Origin: an uncultured Ardenticatenia bacterium
GTDB taxonomy: Bacteria; Chloroflexota; Anaerolineae; Promineifilales; Promineifilaceae
Assembly (NCBI GenBank): GCA_937858165.1
Contig: CALLZA010000667.1
Location: 1-5,260 of the forward strand
Length of the DNA: 5,260 bases
Direction: 5' to 3'
Below are positions 1 through 5,260 of the stretch, one piece after another. The notes under the pieces were generated by a model. That model worked only from the letters and a program-made list of their open reading frames with translations, was not told the DNA's origin and searched no databases. The first letter of the stretch is position 1. Each line of letters starts with the position of its first letter. The translations under genes were made by a program, and so were the position numbers.

Positions 1-196
1 TGCATCGTTCGTTCAACTATTCGTTTGGTCTGTCTCTCTGAGTTGTTGTACGCATTCAGCTTACTGTTGTCTTACTTACAGTACGTATAAGTGTCAGACA
101 TCGTTAATCAACTCAGTGGTTGAGTTCGTGTGTGTATACTTGCTCGCGCGTCGGCAGCGTCAGGAGGTGTATAAGAGACAGATTTTTTTTTTTTTT
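1..196. other. Non-genomic flank (sequencing noise and degraded adapter copies)
   Basis: This stretch lies outside the intact P5 adapter that starts at 197, so it cannot be part of the same genomic insert. It ends in a run of T (183-196) directly before P5, which is the reverse complement of a read running through P5 into template-free poly-A. Positions 148-181 hold a degraded copy of the Nextera read-1 transposon adapter: 151-161 match exactly, 168-181 match exactly, and the middle has a substitution and an extra base. A weaker mosaic-end-like stretch lies at 80-97. Open frames here translate to adapter peptides such as FFFFLMIRRPPRSTL and should not be annotated as genes. Confidence 0.85.
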
Positions 197-266
197 AATG
201 ATACGGCGACCACCGAGATCTACACTAGATCGCTCGTCGGCAGCGTCAGATGTGTATAAGAGACAG
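197..266 (+). other. Illumina Nextera P5 + i5 index + Tn5 mosaic end adapter
   Basis: Positions 197-225 are the P5 flow-cell sequence without a mismatch, starting AATGATACGGCGACC. Positions 226-233 (TAGATCGC) match the Nextera i5 index 501 as I remember it. Positions 234-247 are the read-1 adapter part TCGTCGGCAGCGTC, and 248-266 are the 19-base Tn5 mosaic end AGATGTGTATAAGAGACAG. The order and orientation are exactly those of a Nextera library molecule, so genomic DNA begins at 267. Translations of this block give the well-known artefact peptides SSAASDVYKRQ and MCIRDS. Confidence 0.98.
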
Positions 267-341
267 CCCAAACGGCGCGAATCGGAGACGGACAAAGAAG
301 AAGAGTAGGGTTGCGGTTGCTCGCCGCGCCTGCTCACCAAC

Positions 342-348
342 AAAGGAG
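342..348 (+). promoter_or_regulatory. Shine-Dalgarno site fixing the start at 359
   Basis: AAAGGAG lies 10 bases before the ATG at 359. It supports this start over a TTG 48 bases upstream in the same frame, which would add a non-membrane leader encoded partly by the untranslated region. Confidence 0.8.
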
Positions 349-358
349 TACACATTCA

Positions 359-748
359 ATGGGCACACTCACGACCATCCACGGCGAAGTCCGCTGGCTG
401 GTGGCCATTCTGGCCGTCGCTATCATTATCAAGTTCGCCATCGGTTGGTTAGGCCGGCGCAATTACACGTCGCTCGACCGCAGCCTGCTGACGGGCTATA
501 CGATCCTGATGGACATCAACGTTCTGTTGGGGCTGATCCTGTTGTTCTTCAACGGCGGGTTCAATGGGCCGCGGCTGGAGCACGCTACGACGATGCTGCT
601 GGCGGCCGTCGCCGGGCACATGACGGCCATCTGGCGGCGTTCGACCGATGCGCCGACCAAGTTCCGTAATCAGTTGTTGCTGGTGGCGTTGTCGCTGCTG
701 CTGGTCTTCTTCGGTGTCATCCGCCTGCGCGGCGGCTTCACGTTCTAG
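359..748 (+). CDS. Small four-helix integral membrane protein, function unknown
   Basis: The gene encodes 129 residues, from an ATG with a good ribosome-binding site to a TAG stop. Four hydrophobic segments are visible at about residues 13-31, 43-64, 75-92 and 104-121, so it should sit in the cytoplasmic membrane. There is no signal peptide and no soluble domain. Histidines lie at the start of the first helix (H8, in HGEVRW) and at both ends of the third (H75 after E74, and H87 in GHMTAIW). Such placement can bind heme b or a metal, but that is only an inference. I recall similar short four-helix proteins from Chloroflexota without a known role and cannot assign a family. It stands alone on the plus strand, converging with the carboxypeptidase gene, and the adapter junction only 92 bp upstream hides any operon partner before it. 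Confidence 0.8.
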   Translation: MGTLTTIHGEVRWLVAILAVAIIIKFAIGWLGRRNYTSLDRSLLTGYTILMDINVLLGLILLFFNGGFNGPRLEHATTMLLAAVAGHMTAIWRRSTDAPTKFRNQLLLVALSLLLVFFGVIRLRGGFTF

Positions 749-750
749 AA

Positions 751-843
751 GACCTCACGCTAAGATCGCCAAGGACGCAAAAGGCGCAAAGAAGAATCTT
801 ATCTTTGCGCCTTTTGCGTCCTTGGCGATCTTGGCGTGAGGTT
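751..843. terminator. Long near-perfect inverted repeat, probable bidirectional terminator
   Basis: The arms 752-791 and 803-842 are 40 bases each and complementary at all but one position (T761 opposite G833, still a G-U pair in RNA). A further A-T pair (792/802) closes a 9-base loop. It begins 3 bases after the stop of the plus-strand gene and ends 13 bases before the stop of the minus-strand gene, exactly where a shared terminator for convergent genes would lie. There is no classic long U tract on either side, only T-rich sequence after 842. The core with CCAAGGACGCAAAAGGCGC resembles a dispersed hairpin repeat seen in many environmental bacterial genomes, often mistranslated as AKDAKGAK peptides. 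It may therefore be a mobile repeat that took on a terminator role. Confidence 0.75.
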
Positions 844-855
844 CTTTCTGTCTTA

Positions 856-2358
856 CTAGAGGGCGTACAGTTCGCCGAATTTGTTGGTGGCGTAGCGGAT
901 GAAGGCGGCGTGGCTCAGGGGTTGGCCAGTGACACGCTGTACCAGTTCGCCAGGGGTGAACTTTCGGCCGTGCTGGTGGATGTTTTCTTGCAGCCAGGCC
1001 AGCAGGGCCGTGGTCTTGCCTTGCGCCAGTTCGTCGACGATGGCCGGGTTTTGCGCCGCGGCCGTCTCGTAGAACTGGGCCGCATAGAGGTTGCCCAGGG
1101 CGTAGGTCGGGAAGTAACCGAAGCCAGGCCGCGTCCAGTGAACGTCTTGCAGGCAGCCCTGGCTGTCGTCCGGTGGGGTGATGCCCAGCATCGTTTGCAT
1201 CTTGTCGTTCCAGGCCGCCGGCAGGTCGGCCACGGCCAGATCGCCGCTGAGCATGGCCTGCTCCAACTCGAAGCGCAGGATAATGTGGAAGTTGTAGGTC
1301 AACTCGTCGGCCTCGACGCGGATGAATGACGGCTGCGTTTTGTTGACGGCCCGATAGAAAATCTCGGCGGTGCTATTGCCCAGCGCTTTGGGGAAGAGGC
1401 TCTGCAGCGTCGGGAAGTGGGCCTGCCAGAAGCCGCGGCTGCGGCCGACCACGTTTTCCATCATGCGCGACTGCGACTCGTGGATGCCCGACGACGTGCC
1501 GCGGGCCAGCGGTGTGCGGGCCAGTTCGGCGGCCGTACCCTGCTCATACATGGCATGGCCGCACTCGTGCAGCGTGCCGAAGAGCGATGGGTTGATGAAG
1601 TCGGGATACCAGCGGGTGGTGATGCGGGCGTCGTTGCGGCTGAAGCTGGTGGCGAACGGGTGGACGACGGTTCCCAGGTGGCCGCGCTCGAAGTCGTAGC
1701 CCAGAGCCGTGGCCGCGTAGCGCGCAAACTGCTTCTGCTTCTCGATGTCGTAGGGCTGGTGGAGGATGCTGTCGTCGATCTTGACCGAACTGCGGTCGAT
1801 GGCCTCGCGCAGGGGGATGAGATCGGCCTTCAGGGCGTCGAAGATGGCGCGCACTTCGGCCGTCTTGGTGTTCGTGTCGTACTTGTCCAGCAGCGGGTCG
1901 TAGCGATCGTCCTCGTAGCCGTAGTATTCGGCCAACTCCTGACACAGGCTGACGACCTGCTCCAGCCACGGCCGGAAGTGGTCAAAGTCGTTCTCGGCGC
2001 GCGCCTTGACCCACGCCTCGTGTGCCCGGCCGCTGATCTGCGACGAGCGGGCCACGTAGTCGGCAGGCAGCTTGCGGGCGTCGGCATAGTGGCGGCGCAG
2101 TACGCGGATGAGGGCAGCCTCGCGGCTGTCGTACGCCGCGCCGTCGATTTCGGTTGCGGCGCGCTCGATCAACTCGCCCATCTCGTCAGAGGTGGACATG
2201 CGGTGAATGAGGCTGCTGAGTGTCGTCTGCTGGGCGATGCGCTCGGCGATGCCGGCGTGGGGCATGTTGACTTCGCGATCCCAGTAAAGCACGGCGCTGG
2301 CTTTGCCCAGGTCGTCCAGTTCGTGGACACGGGTGATCAGGGTATCAAAGTGGGACAT
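856..2358 (-). CDS. Carboxypeptidase Taq-type metallopeptidase, family M32
   Basis: The product is a 500-residue cytoplasmic zinc carboxypeptidase that should remove C-terminal residues from peptides, with broad specificity as usual for M32. The full set of family motifs is present in order: HPF at 233-235, DARITTR at 243-249, the zinc-binding HECGH at 264-268 with E265 as catalytic base, HESQS at 293-297 with E294 as third zinc ligand, IRVEAD at 346-351, GCLQDVHW at 401-408, then the typical GYFPTYALGNLYAAQ at 414-428. The length is normal for the family and no signal peptide or membrane helix is visible, so it looks complete and active. The start ATG at 2358 has AAAGGA 11 bases upstream. 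That site falls in the 18-nt gap after the stop of the preceding small gene, so the two are probably co-transcribed and translationally coupled. The gene ends at the large hairpin. Confidence 0.97.
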   Translation of the reverse strand: MSHFDTLITRVHELDDLGKASAVLYWDREVNMPHAGIAERIAQQTTLSSLIHRMSTSDEMGELIERAATEIDGAAYDSREAALIRVLRRHYADARKLPADYVARSSQISGRAHEAWVKARAENDFDHFRPWLEQVVSLCQELAEYYGYEDDRYDPLLDKYDTNTKTAEVRAIFDALKADLIPLREAIDRSSVKIDDSILHQPYDIEKQKQFARYAATALGYDFERGHLGTVVHPFATSFSRNDARITTRWYPDFINPSLFGTLHECGHAMYEQGTAAELARTPLARGTSSGIHESQSRMMENVVGRSRGFWQAHFPTLQSLFPKALGNSTAEIFYRAVNKTQPSFIRVEADELTYNFHIILRFELEQAMLSGDLAVADLPAAWNDKMQTMLGITPPDDSQGCLQDVHWTRPGFGYFPTYALGNLYAAQFYETAAAQNPAIVDELAQGKTTALLAWLQENIHQHGRKFTPGELVQRVTGQPLSHAAFIRYATNKFGELYAL

Positions 2359-2376
2359 AAGGCTATTCGTCCTTTG

Positions 2377-2775
2377 TTAAATCGCTCTCATCCGGTTGTT
2401 CCGCGGCCCGTGCTCCAACTCGACCAGCCCCAGCGCTTCCATCAGCGGCGGGACGTAGTTGCCGAAGCGGCCGCGCAGCCCCTTCTTCGTGCCATACCAG
2501 CCGCCGACGGGGTTATCGGCCGCCCGCGCCCAGGCCTCCACCGTGCCCGCGGCGGCCGGCTTCTGCTCGTCGGCGCTGCCCAAGGGCAACCAGTCGCCGT
2601 GGCTCTTCAGCATGGCGTGCAGGTCTTCGATGGCCCGCCACTGGTAACCCAGCGTTGTCGTACCAACCTGACAGACCAACACGTCGCCGTCGCGGTACAT
2701 CTGATAATCGCCTTTGCCGCTGGGAGTCGTCAACTGCCAGGGGTCGTCCTTCGTTCCGCTGCCGTTGGTTGTCAT
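2377..2775 (-). CDS. Conserved small protein of unknown function, first gene of unit with M32 peptidase
   Basis: The gene encodes 132 residues starting MTTNGSGTKDDPW. I recognise it as a conserved family of soluble bacterial proteins without known function, and I am not sure of its DUF number. Conserved-looking parts are the N-terminal GSGTKDDPWQL stretch, the DEQKPAAAGTVEAWAR stretch near residue 80, and a C-terminal block with NPVGGWYGTKKGLRGRFGNY and ending RNNRMRAI. It has no signal peptide, membrane helix or cysteine pairs. The start at 2775 is chosen because AAAGGAG lies 8 bases before it. A longer frame from 2901 would add 42 residues encoded by AT-rich intergenic DNA. Its stop is 18 nt before the carboxypeptidase start, so both are likely made from one message. 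A role linked to peptide turnover is possible from position only. Confidence 0.85.
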   Translation of the reverse strand: MTTNGSGTKDDPWQLTTPSGKGDYQMYRDGDVLVCQVGTTTLGYQWRAIEDLHAMLKSHGDWLPLGSADEQKPAAAGTVEAWARAADNPVGGWYGTKKGLRGRFGNYVPPLMEALGLVELEHGPRNNRMRAI

Positions 2776-2783
2776 GATCGAGT

Positions 2784-2790
2784 CTCCTTT
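2784..2790 (-). promoter_or_regulatory. Shine-Dalgarno site fixing the start at 2775
   Basis: The minus strand reads AAAGGAG here, 8 bases before the ATG. It decides against the upstream in-frame ATG at 2901. Confidence 0.8.
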
Positions 2791-2894
2791 GATGAACGAT
2801 TTTTGTTGATAGTGACGCGCCGAACTTGTAGCATAAGCTCTTTTTGAATGGGTGTACTCCTGTTTTACGTTCCACGGCTGGCCAATAGAGGAAA

Positions 2895-2922
2895 CATCCA
2901 CAGATCACGCAGATTTTTCAGA
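2895..2922 (-). repeat. Possible fragment of a dispersed intergenic repeat
   Basis: The minus strand reads AATCTGCGTGATCTGTGGAT, very close to a sequence (AATCTGCGTAATCTGTGGAT) that I remember as recurring between genes in many unrelated bacteria. Only one copy is present in this window, so the repeat nature rests on memory and not on comparison here. Confidence 0.35.
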
Positions 2923-2965
2923 GACACCTTTATGCAAATTGCGTCATCTTAAAATGGTTTACCTA

Positions 2966-3559
2966 TTAGATAACTACCAACCCGCGGAGTACAGAATGCA
3001 TCCATAACGCAATGACAGTGTCCGCATGATAAATACTGGCTGCCGGCTCGGCCACATACTCCGTCAGAAACCACGCCCCCGCGCAGGCCAGCGCAACCAG
3101 GATGATCGCCACGATCAGGGCCACAATGAAGCAGGCACGCACGCAGCCGAAGCTGCCCGCCGGCAGGGTGCGAACTTTGGAGCCGGGGGCGTTGGGGATG
3201 GGGCGGGCAGCTCCCGGGCGCGGCCCAGACCGATTGGGGGCCGGCCGAGCGCGCGCCGGCTGCCCATCCGGCATGATAGGGACGACGCGGGGCCGGGAGG
3301 GTGGCCGGCGAACGGGCGGCGCGGTAGGCGATGGCGGTGCAGTGGGCAGTTCGGTAGTCGGTTCGCCAACCACGCCCTGGCCCGTGCAGCCATAGGCTGT
3401 ACAGTGGTTGTTGTTGGCTTCCCAGCAGTGAACGTGGTGGCGGCTGCCGTCTTCGGGACAGATGACGATGGCATCGGCGGCAACGAACTCCTGCTTGCAC
3501 AGGGCGCACGTCTGGCCCACAAAGGTAGACGACTCGCCGAGGTGGTGGGGGCGGATCAT
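2966..3559 (-). CDS. Membrane-anchored RING-like (prokaryotic RING finger) protein
   Basis: The product has 197 residues. An N-terminal zinc-binding treble clef spans about residues 18-58: C18-x2-C21, then CPEDG with C34, then H42-x2-C45-W, C53 and C58. This matches the Prok-RING_1 style seen in its neighbour, except that the fourth ligand position is aspartate (D37) instead of cysteine. A proline- and arginine-rich low-complexity stalk follows (about 63-128), then one hydrophobic helix (about 142-165) that should anchor it in the membrane, and a short tail. In known bacterial ubiquitin-like systems RING proteins of this kind are thought to act as E3-like adaptors. Here that is inference from fold and from the JAB gene upstream. 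The ATG at 3559 has GAGG at 3570-3573, inside a perfect hairpin, so translation may be regulated by RNA structure. It is the last gene of the minus-strand cluster. A plain zinc-ribbon binding module is the alternative. Confidence 0.82.
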   Translation of the reverse strand: MIRPHHLGESSTFVGQTCALCKQEFVAADAIVICPEDGSRHHVHCWEANNNHCTAYGCTGQGVVGEPTTELPTAPPSPTAPPVRRPPSRPRVVPIMPDGQPARARPAPNRSGPRPGAARPIPNAPGSKVRTLPAGSFGCVRACFIVALIVAIILVALACAGAWFLTEYVAEPAASIYHADTVIALWMHSVLRGLVVI

Positions 3560-3566
3560 GGTGCGT

Positions 3567-3600
3567 AGACCTCAGAGGTTTTCATAAACCTCTGAGGTCT
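3567..3600. repeat. Perfect 15-bp hairpin covering the ribosome-binding site of the second RING gene
   Basis: The arms 3567-3581 (AGACCTCAGAGGTTT) and 3586-3600 are exact reverse complements around a 4-base loop. Each arm is itself nearly palindromic (ACCTC-A-GAGGT), so the element could also fold as two small hairpins. It lies between the stop of the upstream RING gene at 3609 and the ATG at 3559, and includes the only plausible Shine-Dalgarno bases (GAGG, 3573-3570 on the minus strand). No U tract follows on the minus strand, so a strong intrinsic terminator is unlikely. A REP-like dispersed repeat, an mRNA-processing signal or a translation switch are all possible. I recall similar palindromes being common in Chloroflexota genomes. 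Confidence 0.75.
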
Positions 3601-3608
3601 GGTTTTGG

Positions 3609-4028
3609 TTAGGGGTTGATCTTGATCTGATCCAGCAACCACTTCCAGATGCGCTGGAAGAGGGTCATGCGCTGCACCTGGCGGCGCTGCTCCTCCTTCA
3701 GGCGGCGGTTCTGGGTGCTGGGGCCGCCGTTGACCGAAGGGGCGGGCAAGTCTGTATACTTGACCTTCAGCACTGGCTTGGTGTTCTTGCCATAGACGTG
3801 GAACTTGTCGCTGCCGCAGCCAAGCACGGCGCACTTGCCGCCGCTCTGCTCCCAGCAGGCACGATGGTAGAGCGTGCCACACTTGTCGCAGACGACCGGA
3901 ACCAGCGCCGCACCGTCGGTGTGGTTCTCCACCGCGTTGCCGCAAATGGGGCAGGAGAGGCTGAGCTGGTTCGCCTCGGAGATGTCATGCTCCGTGATGC
4001 GGAGGAATGGATTCTCGTGTTCTTGCAT
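3609..4028 (-). CDS. Small RING/treble-clef zinc protein (prokaryotic RING finger family)
   Basis: From the chosen start the protein has 139 residues. A complete eight-ligand binuclear zinc site is visible: C26-x2-C29, C47-x2-C50, H55-x2-C58-W, C66-x4-C71. This C4-H-C3 order with CDKCGTLYHRACW is the signature of prokaryotic RING finger proteins related to the ubiquitin E3 fold. A short basic and polar linker follows, then an amphipathic basic and aromatic C-terminus (about 108-139, with LFQRIWKWLLDQI) that could lie on a membrane or bind a partner. There is no true membrane helix. The start is uncertain. ATG 4028 has only a weak AGG upstream, whereas ATG 4130 has GGAG 7 bases before it and would add 34 residues. 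I prefer 4028 because that added part uses TTA, ATA, AGG and CGA codons unlike the rest and contains a TATAAT box. It lies downstream of the JAB gene and 49 bp before the next RING gene. Confidence 0.82.
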   Translation of the reverse strand: MQEHENPFLRITEHDISEANQLSLSCPICGNAVENHTDGAALVPVVCDKCGTLYHRACWEQSGGKCAVLGCGSDKFHVYGKNTKPVLKVKYTDLPAPSVNGGPSTQNRRLKEEQRRQVQRMTLFQRIWKWLLDQIKINP

Positions 4029-4118
4029 GGCCCGAAACCTGGAAGTGCCCGGCCGGCTGTCCGCTATGTCGGTCGCGGCCGTTCGCGGTGTGCCCGCGCC
4101 TCGCGCTTCTAAGCCCTG

Positions 4119-4124
4119 ATTATA
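4119..4124 (-). promoter_or_regulatory. Candidate -10 box (TATAAT) for the RING gene pair
   Basis: The minus strand reads TATAAT exactly, about 90 bases before the preferred RING gene start at 4028. No good TTGACA-like box is found 16-18 bases upstream (AGAATC or CAGAAT at that distance), so this is a weak call. If real, the RING genes can be transcribed separately from the JAB gene, and the alternative start at 4130 would lie upstream of the message. Confidence 0.3.
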
Positions 4125-4180
4125 CACCATTTTCTAGCTCCGATTCTGCGTGTACGCTAATTCCAATGAACCGCGGAAGA

Positions 4181-4213
4181 CCCTCTCCCCAATCCTCTTC
4201 CGGAGGGCGAGGG
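4181..4213. repeat. Imperfect hairpin after the JAB gene
   Basis: CCCTCTCCC (4181-4189) pairs with GGGCGAGGG (4205-4213), with one mismatch in nine, around a 15-base spacer. It begins 7 bases after the JAB stop on the minus strand. The CCCTCTCCC pattern resembles widespread GC-rich intergenic repeats. No U tract follows, so a terminator role is only possible, though its position would fit. Confidence 0.4.
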
Positions 4214-4220
4214 GCAAGAA

Positions 4221-5090
4221 CTACCAGGAACCGGCCGCCCACTCCGGCCACACGAAGTCATAGCGATTGACCTTCGTCCTCTGCCGGTTCCAGCAAAAGA
4301 AGCCGCTGGTGCGGGCACGCGGGTCCAGGACGTAGGCCACGTGCCAGATCTGGGTGAAGAAGTTCTGGTGGATGAACAGGTCCATGCCCGACAGGAAGAT
4401 GCCGAAGCCGGGGTGGGTGTGATACCAGCCGACCATGACGGCGCTCTCATCGGGATAGCGCTCCCACAATGTGTCGTTGAGGTAGCGCCAGCTTTCGGGC
4501 GTATAGGTGACGCTGGCCCCGTGCATGACGGTATGCTTGGCGATGATGCTGTCGATGACGTGGACGATGTAGCGGCCGTCGGGCTGCTTCTCCGGCTGGC
4601 GACCGATCATTACCCCGGCGACCTCGCGGTCGATGCTGCTCAGGGCGTGGGCCTGCATGGCGCGCAAGGGCGCTTCGTCCAACAAGATATCGACCGCCGC
4701 GCCGCCGGACAAGGGCAGCGGCAGCCGCGCGCCGGCCACGCGCACGCGTGCCTGGCTGGGGATGATGGTCGCTGTGTCGGCCGGAGGAGCGGGCGGTTCT
4801 TTGGGGGGCGGCGGAGGCGATGTTGGTTCCGGCGCGGGCGCGGCGGCTTCAACCAGTGTCGATTCGGCCGCGGCCAAAGTGCCCGTCACGACCCTAGGCT
4901 CTGGGGTGGGTGGAGACAACGCTTCAGCCTCTGGCTCAGCGGCCGGCGGGGGCGGCGCGGGTGTCTCGACGGGGGTGGCGGCGTCGGCCTCGCGCGGGGC
5001 GATCAGAATGATGGCCTCGCCCAGCCAATCCTCGACTTCGGCCCCAGCCTGGCCGCTGTCCTCCAGTGGGCGCCGCTCGATGTCGAAGTC
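4221..5090 (-). CDS. JAB/MPN (JAMM) metalloprotease with proline-rich N-terminal region, 5' end missing
   Basis: The frame is open from the contig end at 5090 to a TAG at 4221, giving 289 residues without a native start. Residues encoded beyond 5090 are adapter and must be discarded. An acidic, partly hydrophobic N-terminal piece (about 1-35) of unknown fold leads into a long proline-, alanine- and glutamate-rich linker (about 38-108). A JAB domain follows (about 130-280). The complete JAMM active site is present: E156 in EVAGVMIG, then HTHPGFGIFLSGMD with H224, H226, S234 and D237, which fits H-x-H-x7-S-x2-D. Enzymes of this fold cleave isopeptide bonds or the C-terminus of ubiquitin-like proteins. 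Some bacterial relatives instead process sulfur-carrier proteins. Two RING-like genes follow on the same strand, which favours a ubiquitin-like pathway. Partners such as E1, E2 or the modifier may lie beyond the contig end. Confidence 0.92.
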   Translation of the reverse strand, partial: DFDIERRPLEDSGQAGAEVEDWLGEAIILIAPREADAATPVETPAPPPPAAEPEAEALSPPTPEPRVVTGTLAAAESTLVEAAAPAPEPTSPPPPPKEPPAPPADTATIIPSQARVRVAGARLPLPLSGGAAVDILLDEAPLRAMQAHALSSIDREVAGVMIGRQPEKQPDGRYIVHVIDSIIAKHTVMHGASVTYTPESWRYLNDTLWERYPDESAVMVGWYHTHPGFGIFLSGMDLFIHQNFFTQIWHVAYVLDPRARTSGFFCWNRQRTKVNRYDFVWPEWAAGSW

Positions 5091-5156
5091 CTGGCTCTTA
5101 TACACATCTCCCAGCCCACGAGACCGCACTAGATCTCCTATGCCGGCTTCTGCTTG
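5091..5156 (+). other. Illumina Nextera mosaic end + i7 index + P7 adapter (with base errors)
   Basis: Positions 5091-5109 match the reverse mosaic end CTGTCTCTTATACACATCT with one error. Positions 5110-5124 match the read-2 adapter part with one error. Positions 5125-5132 (CGCACTAG) are one base from the index 702 sequence CGTACTAG as I remember it. Positions 5133-5156 match the P7 tail ending TTCTGCTTG with two errors. Genomic DNA therefore stops at 5090. Reverse-strand translation gives the artefact FFFFFQAEAGIGDLVRSRGLGDVYKSQ in pieces, fused in frame onto the JAB protein. Confidence 0.96.
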
Positions 5157-5260
5157 AAAAAAAAAAAAACACCACCACCCCCCCACCCCCCACCCCCGCT
5201 ATCATCACCAATCATCCAGACACACATAACTGATAACATCAACACACATCTAACACAAAA
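5157..5260. other. Poly-A and low-complexity sequencing noise beyond P7
   Basis: A run of 13 A (5157-5169) directly follows the P7 end, as expected when a read passes the end of its template. The rest is C/A-rich low-complexity sequence with no gene or structure and is not genomic. Confidence 0.9.

What the first reader, a model, noticed from the sequence alone, without database searches (positions are those of the whole stretch)
2966..5090. JAB isopeptidase next to two RING-like proteins: partial ubiquitin-like module in a bacterium
Seen: a full JAMM motif (E156, H224-x-H226, S234, D237) in one gene and two proteins with RING-type zinc ligand patterns just downstream on the same strand. Known: bacterial operons combining JAB peptidases, Prok-RING proteins, E1-like, E2-like and ubiquitin-like proteins have been described, including in Chloroflexota. 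Inferred: this is the deconjugation and E3-like end of such a system, with the missing parts beyond 5090. Two RING genes in tandem, one soluble and one membrane-anchored, is an arrangement I do not recognise from a standard description.
Basis: partly seen in the sequence, partly recalled or inferred. Interest (0 to 1): 0.75.

Follow-up and report, generated by a model that had tools for sequence, protein, structure and literature searches.

The report
Ubiquitin-like tagging system without a proteasome
The window holds the last three genes of a ubiquitin-like gene set of up to seven (activating enzyme, modifier, transfer enzyme, two JAB proteases, one or two RING proteins) that sits in nearly every genome of one Chloroflexota family in which no proteasome gene was found, and it is predicted to tag proteins and untag them again, likely at the cell membrane.

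Summary
The window is a short MAG contig (adaptor at 1-266 and 5091-5260) ending inside a JAB gene; downstream lie two PF14446 RING genes, one soluble (RING1), one with a transmembrane helix (RING2). In relatives (named records: Promineifilum and other Chloroflexota MAGs) the order is E1 - YukD-like Ubl - E2 - JAB1(TM) - JAB2 - RING1 - RING2. From the Ubl onward it is kept in 30 of 30 named loci with 5 kb downstream, RING2 missing from 9. E1 and Ubl occur in 49 of 52 family genomes, E2 and RING1 in 47. The Ubl is the most conserved part (90.7% mean identity). Catalytic motifs and zinc ligands are conserved. No 20S proteasome or HslV was found (0 of 52). RING2 models like membrane E3 RINGs; RING1's model is weak. 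Best reading: a complete, partly membrane-anchored Ubl conjugation/deconjugation cascade, likely housekeeping and non-proteasomal. Prokaryotic E1-E2-RING-JAB-Ubl operons are already described, so this is a new variant of a known kind. Conjugation, substrates and RING activity remain predictions.

The parts
4221..5090 (-). JAB2, JAMM-type isopeptidase-like protein, N-terminus cut by the end of the insert
   Evidence: PF01398 37.9 bits; best PDB relative Rpn11/PSMD14, E 1.3e-9, aligned over VGWYHTHPGFG..SG.D; complete JAMM in 34 of 38 relatives; the other 4 (L057, L070, L074, L093) lie at contig ends by the maps and are unresolved
4380..4421 (-). JAMM core H225-x-H227...S235..D238 (the Glu, E157, is at 4623-4625)
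3609..4130 (-). RING1, soluble Prok-RING_1 protein with a C-terminal helix
   Evidence: PF14446 40.4 bits; C4HC3 ligands in 33 of 33 relatives; no TM stretch in 33 of 33 relatives; helix 157-169 in the model
3816..3953 (-). RING domain of RING1 (C60-C105)
2966..3559 (-). RING2, Prok-RING_1 domain, linker, one transmembrane helix
3386..3508 (-). RING domain of RING2 (C18-C58; fourth ligand place is D37)
   Evidence: D in 23 and C in 1 of 24 relatives
3080..3136 (-). transmembrane segment of RING2, residues 142-160
   Evidence: Kyte-Doolittle mean 3.19; helix 137-169 in the model
3567..3600 (-). hairpin in the RING1-RING2 gap
   Evidence: 15-bp stem, -25.7 kcal/mol, z -8.0
5091..5260 (.). library adaptor and trailing end, not genome
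   Evidence: mosaic-end match at 5091 with 1 mismatch
1..266 (.). library adaptor and leading end, not genome
   Evidence: P5, i5 tail and mosaic end at 197-266, a second mosaic end at 163 with 2 mismatches

Best explanation
The window encodes a JAB-family protein and two RING-family proteins that belong to a seven-gene cassette (E1, YukD-like Ubl, E2, JAB1, JAB2, RING1, RING2), which is predicted to attach the Ubl to proteins and take it off again, likely at the cytoplasmic membrane and likely as a signal that does not lead to a proteasome. Steps. (1) Inferred: the E1 adenylates the Ubl C-terminus (...VTAG) and carries it on a cysteine; C192 in YSCPLL (L063 numbering) is the best candidate. 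(2) Inferred: the Ubl passes to the E2 cysteine C99, next to a canonical HPN motif. (3) Inferred: RING1, the near-constant RING, and RING2, the membrane-anchored accessory RING, hold E2~Ubl near substrates. (4) Inferred: JAB2 (soluble, Rpn11-like) and JAB1 (TM-anchored) cut the Ubl off, and a JAB may trim the few Ubls that have residues after the glycine. Shown: gene content, order, motifs, presence across the family, no proteasome-family hit.
For: Whole cassette contiguous in G001, a 3-contig, 99%-complete genome. Order Ubl-E2-JAB1-JAB2-RING1(-RING2) kept in 30 of 30 named loci with at least 5 kb downstream. Family-wide: Ubl 49 of 52, E1 49 of 52, E2 47 of 52, RING1 47 of 52; in high-quality genomes 17, 17, 17 and 16 of 17. 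Pfam: ThiF 170.8 bits, YukD 40.3, UQ_con 54.7. The E2's best PDB relatives are Ubc1 and UbcH5-type E2s, and the alignments keep HPN, the Cys and, with UbcH5b, the W-x-P-A loop. H, P, N and C are invariant in 45 of 45 E2s; in the loop P is in 35 and A in 44 of 45. E1 C192 is invariant in 39 of 39; the E1's top PDB relatives are UBA7 and SUMO UBA2. JAMM is complete in 44 of 44 JAB1 and 34 of 38 JAB2. All 45 Ubl tails not cut at a contig end contain VTAG; in 41 it is the very end, in 4 it is followed by 1-5 residues, as an unprocessed modifier would be. Ubl mean identity is 90.7% against 50-78% for the other parts (22 loci) while fourfold sites are equally diverged in all parts (0.41-0.48 identical). 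TM stretch in RING2 24 of 24 and JAB1 41 of 44, none in RING1 (33) or JAB2 (38). PF00227 in 0 of 52 genomes, controls ringing in 10 of 14. RING2 model matches E3 RINGs.
Confidence: 0.8

Rival explanations
1. It is an anti-phage or other conflict system, like Bil, type II CBASS or the FtsH/vWA ternary systems, in which Ubl conjugation disables invaders or arms an effector.
For: The bacterial Ubl cascades with a stated role that I met in the calls are conflict or defence systems (PMC10097602, search listing with start of abstract only; PMC7159879, passages). E1 and JAB1 score against PADLOC E1-E2, BilD and JAB models, JAB2 against a JAB model. The dynamin-like protein scores weakly against LeoA/LeoBC around its P-loop.
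Against: E1, E2 and Ubl are each in 17 of 17 high-quality genomes of the family, while defence systems are usually patchy (recalled). In G001 the genes after RING2 look like a peptidase, transporter-type and glycosidase genes (my labels by eye; only the M32 peptidase is confirmed, in the window). The Ubl is a free 88-aa protein in the loci aligned. The PADLOC E1 hits cover mainly the nucleotide-binding fold. Flanking genes were not scanned for caspases, EADs or CD-NTases.
Confidence: 0.12
2. The PF14446 proteins are structural zinc modules, not E3s; the E2 acts alone and the cassette is an E1-E2-JAB system with zinc-bearing adaptors.
For: RING1 model is weak; no conserved linchpin; in 9 of 14 picked PF14446 regions elsewhere no E1/E2 was found.
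Against: RING2 aligns over its whole domain to E2-binding E3 RINGs. The hydrophobic residue between the first two cysteines is in at least 90% of rows in both (I62, L20) and the E2 keeps the W-x-P-A loop. RING1 follows JAB2 in 30 of 30 loci.
Confidence: 0.2
3. The YukD-like protein is a part of a type VII (ESX/WXG100) secretion apparatus and is not conjugated; E1/E2 relatives serve another purpose.
For: PF08817 YukD match, 40.3 bits. PMC1779556 (passages) says that YukD of the secretion operons was shown not to be covalently conjugated.
Against: The Ubl gene is beside the E2 in 30 of 30 loci, and 45 of 45 uncut tails contain VTAG, 41 of them as the very end. No search for an FtsK-like ATPase or WXG100 protein was made.
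Confidence: 0.05
4. A sulfur-carrier pathway (ThiS/MoaD-like) rather than protein conjugation.
For: The E1 is a ThiF-fold protein and its candidate Cys lies where ThiF/Uba4 carry theirs (recalled).
Against: An E2 with HPN and Cys, RINGs and two JABs have no known role in sulfur carriage (gene content; the point itself is recalled).
Confidence: 0.03

Closest known systems
Prokaryotic E1-E2-RING-JAB operons with YukD-like Ubls (Burroughs, Iyer, Aravind 2011, doi 10.1039/c1mb05061c; not held, recalled only; cited in PMC7159879 and PMC11354881)
   Same: As I recall it: separate E1, E2, Ubl, JAB and Prok-RING genes.
   Different: As I recall it, without the doubled JAB and RING with one membrane-anchored member each. 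I could not read the paper, so I cannot say whether it already lists this family.
E1 - TM-RING - E2 - Ubl - JAB - FHA - VWA operon in other Chloroflexota families (seen here in L137 and L143; L141 in part)
   Same: Homologous E1, E2, Ubl (also ending TAG), JAB and a PF14446 RING.
   Different: One RING, placed between E1 and E2, with N-terminal hydrophobic helices in L137 and L135 (by eye); FHA and VWA membrane proteins in L137 and L143; Ubl fused to E2 in L135 and L143.
vWA-MoxR FtsH ternary conflict systems (PMC7159879, passages)
   Same: Complete set of E1, RING-type E3, JAB and Ubl-E2.
   Different: There the Ubl is combined with E2 and coupled to EAD1, with a caspase-like effector; here it is a free 88-aa protein.
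BilABCD (PMC11354881, passages)
   Same: Ubl, E1, E2 and JAB/JAMM DUB in one operon.
   Different: BilA has two Ubl domains and no RING is named in that passage; here one Ubl domain and one or two RINGs.
Eukaryotic PA-TM-RING E3s such as RNF13
   Same: RING2's domain has them among its closest structural matches, and both are membrane-anchored.
   Different: RING2 has the RING N-terminal and the TM helix C-terminal, and no room for a PA domain (197 aa).

Membership tests
Prokaryotic Ubl conjugation operon (E1-E2-RING-JAB-Ubl) | E1 (ThiF fold) gene | tested here: met
   PF00899 170.8 bits; 49 of 52 genomes
Prokaryotic Ubl conjugation operon (E1-E2-RING-JAB-Ubl) | E2 with HPN and catalytic Cys | tested here: met
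   PF00179 54.7 bits; H, P, N and C invariant in 45 of 45
Prokaryotic Ubl conjugation operon (E1-E2-RING-JAB-Ubl) | beta-grasp Ubl with a C-terminal Gly | tested here: met
   PF08817 40.3 bits; VTAG in 45 of 45 uncut tails, 41 at the very end, 4 with short extensions; AG rather than GG
Prokaryotic Ubl conjugation operon (E1-E2-RING-JAB-Ubl) | JAB with full JAMM motif | tested here: met
   window yes; JAB1 44 of 44, JAB2 34 of 38 with 4 unresolved at contig ends
Prokaryotic Ubl conjugation operon (E1-E2-RING-JAB-Ubl) | Prok-RING protein in the same operon | tested here: met
   RING1 in 30 of 30 loci; PF14446 in 33 of 33 RING1 and 25 of 25 RING2 rows
Prokaryotic Ubl conjugation operon (E1-E2-RING-JAB-Ubl) | covalent conjugation to proteins | not testable with these tools
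   needs biochemistry
RING finger (RING2) | eight-ligand pattern in RING order and RING fold | tested here: met
RING finger (RING1) | RING fold | tested here: inconclusive
RING-type E3 ligase | E2 binding and ligase activity | not testable with these tools
   no co-folding or assay was run
Ubiquitin-proteasome system | 20S proteasome or HslV in the genome | tested here: not met
   PF00227 in 0 of 52 genomes, controls 10 of 14
Bil (BilABCD) | two-domain Ubl BilA | tested here: not met
   single 88-aa Ubl; BilD model only 24.6 bits
Type II CBASS (Cap2/Cap3) | fused E1-E2 | tested here: not met
   E1 and E2 are separate genes in the loci mapped that hold both
Type II CBASS (Cap2/Cap3) | CD-NTase in the operon | not tested
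   flanking genes were not scanned for it
Type VII secretion (YukD/EsaB) | FtsK-like ATPase and WXG100 substrates beside YukD | not tested
   no direct search was made; the ten neighbours scanned are other proteins

The most novel reading that the evidence does not exclude
A family-wide housekeeping ubiquitin-like system in bacteria without a proteasome, in which a membrane-tethered RING writer (RING2) and a membrane-tethered JAMM eraser (JAB1) set the Ubl state of envelope proteins, among them the dynamin-like GTPase that heads the same gene run in 15 of 24 loci, so that Ubl tagging controls membrane remodelling.
Probability: 0.2. Interest if true: 0.88.

Novelty: new variant of a known kind. 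Interest (0 to 1): 0.6.

Why it matters
Bacterial ubiquitin-like cascades are known mainly as patchy defence modules (recalled). This one is near-universal in its family, carries E1, E2, RING and JAMM parts that resemble the eukaryotic enzymes, has a modifier that is by far its most constrained part, and sits where no proteasome-family gene was found. It offers a small set of separate genes in which to ask what a RING protein and a JAMM eraser do without a proteasome, and whether ubiquitin-like signalling can be a membrane signal in bacteria.

Tried and rejected
Rejected: the ORF start of JAB at 5186 (adaptor); reading PF14446 alone as proof of a Ubl system (no E1/E2 found in 9 of 14 picked regions); 'tandem RING is constant' (RING2 missing in 9 of 30 loci); 'dynamin-like GTPase is always present' (15 of 24 loci with 9.9 kb upstream). 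NCBIfam and PADLOC gave no informative match for the RINGs. The PDB sequence search with RING1 gave nothing under E 0.1. Foldseek gave no row under E 0.001 for either RING. Papers: Burroughs 2011 is not held (tried by DOI and PMC id), nor a DOI I recalled for a 2024 paper on bacterial ubiquitination. The Promineifilum/Ardenticatenia/ubiquitin terms gave 7 papers, none with 'ubiquitin'; PF14446/Prok-RING terms gave 12 papers, none on this system by title; the held 300,000 of 769,434 characters of PMC7203096 lack the whole word 'ubiquitin'. That I met no description of this family's cassette rests on searches only. The JAB2 N-terminal domain and the 408-aa gene I labelled TTR were not identified (no Pfam hit for the latter). 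The named-genome scan used two short Ubl peptides, so distant members would be missed.
Full report
What the window is. It is contig C667 (5,260 bases) of a 1,043-contig MAG, 79% complete and 5.9% contaminated. Library adaptor marks both ends, up to 266 and from 5091, so the genomic insert is about 267-5090. On the minus strand, reading downstream, it holds JAB2 (N-terminus missing), RING1, RING2, a DUF6855 gene and an M32 carboxypeptidase; on the plus strand a small hydrophobic protein.

The observation. JAB2 has the full JAMM motif and PF01398 at 37.9 bits. RING1 and RING2 both pass the PF14446 cut-off, and they are the only two PF14446 hits in the assembly. RING1 shows C60, C63, C81, C84, H89, C92, C100, C105 (C4HC3), kept in 33 of 33 relatives. 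RING2 shows C18, C21, C34, D37, H42, C45, C53, C58, with D at the fourth place in 23 of 24 relatives and C in one. A prokaryotic C4HC3 order is also what PMC11354881 reports (section 3.8 read).

The missing genes. Contig C744 of the same assembly carries E1(part)-Ubl-E2-JAB1-start of JAB2. The 194-bp overlap with the window is 90% identical at DNA level, so the two contigs may come from sister strains and I do not join them. In G001 (3 contigs) the order is dynamin-like GTPase - unknown 408-aa protein - CAP domain protein - E1 - Ubl - E2 - JAB1 - JAB2 - RING1 - RING2. A scan for the Ubl in named genomes gave 47 loci, all from MAGs or uncultured bins titled Promineifilum, Anaerolineae-type, Ardenticatenia-type or Chloroflexi/Chloroflexota. 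Thirty have at least 5 kb downstream of the Ubl: E2, JAB1, JAB2 and RING1 are in 30 of 30 in the same order, RING2 in 21 of 30. Twenty-four have at least 9.9 kb upstream: E1 in 21, the dynamin-like gene in 15.

Distribution. In the family of the window (52 genomes searched): Ubl 49, E1 49, E2 47, RING1 47, a real RING2 35 (my count of genomes with a row under E 1e-20; the tool's tally of 44 includes weak cross-matches to RING1, and one of the 35, G021, is a partial match). Among 17 high-quality genomes the first four are 17, 17, 17 and 16. One genome, G066, shows RING1 but no Ubl, E1 or E2 (78% complete). In one search RING1 was in 32 of 35 genomes of the family and 0 of 24 others of the same class. 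Across 400 Chloroflexota genomes a match to the Ubl model at E <= 0.001 was in 26, weaker outside the family.

Conservation. Over 22 loci with all of E1, Ubl, E2, JAB1, JAB2 and RING1 the mean pairwise identities are Ubl 90.7, E1 78.3, dynamin-like 78.1 (n=14), E2 77.2, RING1 61.9, JAB2 57.1, RING2 53.6 (n=18), JAB1 50.1. Third bases at fourfold sites with conserved amino acid are about equally diverged in the nine parts compared, 0.41-0.48 identical, so the Ubl is held by selection on the protein. Of 47 Ubl tails 2 are cut at a contig end; the other 45 contain VTAG, 41 as the very end and 4 followed by A, LF, RS or QGRRA.

How it would work. E1, E2 and JAB2 resemble eukaryotic enzymes: best PDB relatives UBA7/UBA2, Ubc1/UbcH5 and Rpn11. 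The E2 keeps HPN, Cys and the W-x-P-A loop that in eukaryotic E2s touches RINGs (last point recalled). TM stretches in RING2 (24 of 24) and JAB1 (41 of 44) against none in RING1 (33) and JAB2 (38) suggest a soluble and a membrane-bound pair of writer and eraser. No PF00227 protein (20S or HslV) was found in 52 genomes while 10 of 14 control genomes rang, so proteasomal fate is unlikely; other proteases were not examined.

Relation to what is known. A different Chloroflexota operon, E1 - RING - E2 - Ubl - JAB - FHA - VWA, was found in other families; of the 14 PF14446 regions picked there, 5 have an E1 and/or E2 beside the RING and in 9 none was found. PMC7159879 (passages) describes a complete Ubl conjugation set with a prokaryotic RING-type E3 inside conflict systems, and PMC1779556 (passages) bacterial operons with E1, E2, JAB and Ubl. 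The kind is therefore known. The doubled JAB and RING with membrane-bound members, the family-wide presence and the missing proteasome are what I regard as new; Burroughs 2011 could not be read and may already list members.

Noticed in passing
window 3567-3600: A 15-bp-stem hairpin (z -8.0 against shuffles) sits between RING1 and RING2; it may attenuate RING2 or be a mobile palindrome.
   Followed up: partly
window about 752-843: A long inverted repeat lies between the plus-strand hydrophobic gene and the M32 gene (seen by eye).
   Followed up: no
L137 152-1792: In another Chloroflexota family the E1 of the related operon carries an N-terminal GntR-type DNA-binding domain (PF00392 74.3 bits).
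   Followed up: no
L135 9090-9926 and L143 7163-8098: A Ubl is fused to the N-terminus of the E2; L143 has a free Ubl as well.
   Followed up: no
L091 13607-14257: The only RING2 of 24 that keeps C-x2-C at the third and fourth ligands; in the other 23 the fourth is Asp, which may be a Cys-to-Asp change.
   Followed up: partly
L037 17170-19821: A dynamin-like GTPase, as conserved as E1 (78% mean identity, n=14), heads the gene run in 15 of 24 loci; PADLOC LeoA/LeoBC score weakly around its P-loop.
   Followed up: partly
window 4897-5090 against C744 (L004) 3650-3843: Overlapping ends differ by 10% in DNA, so the MAG may mix strains.
   Followed up: partly
window 2377-2775: A DUF6855 gene (218.9 bits) lies between RING2 and the M32 gene here but not at that place in the G001 map.
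   Followed up: no
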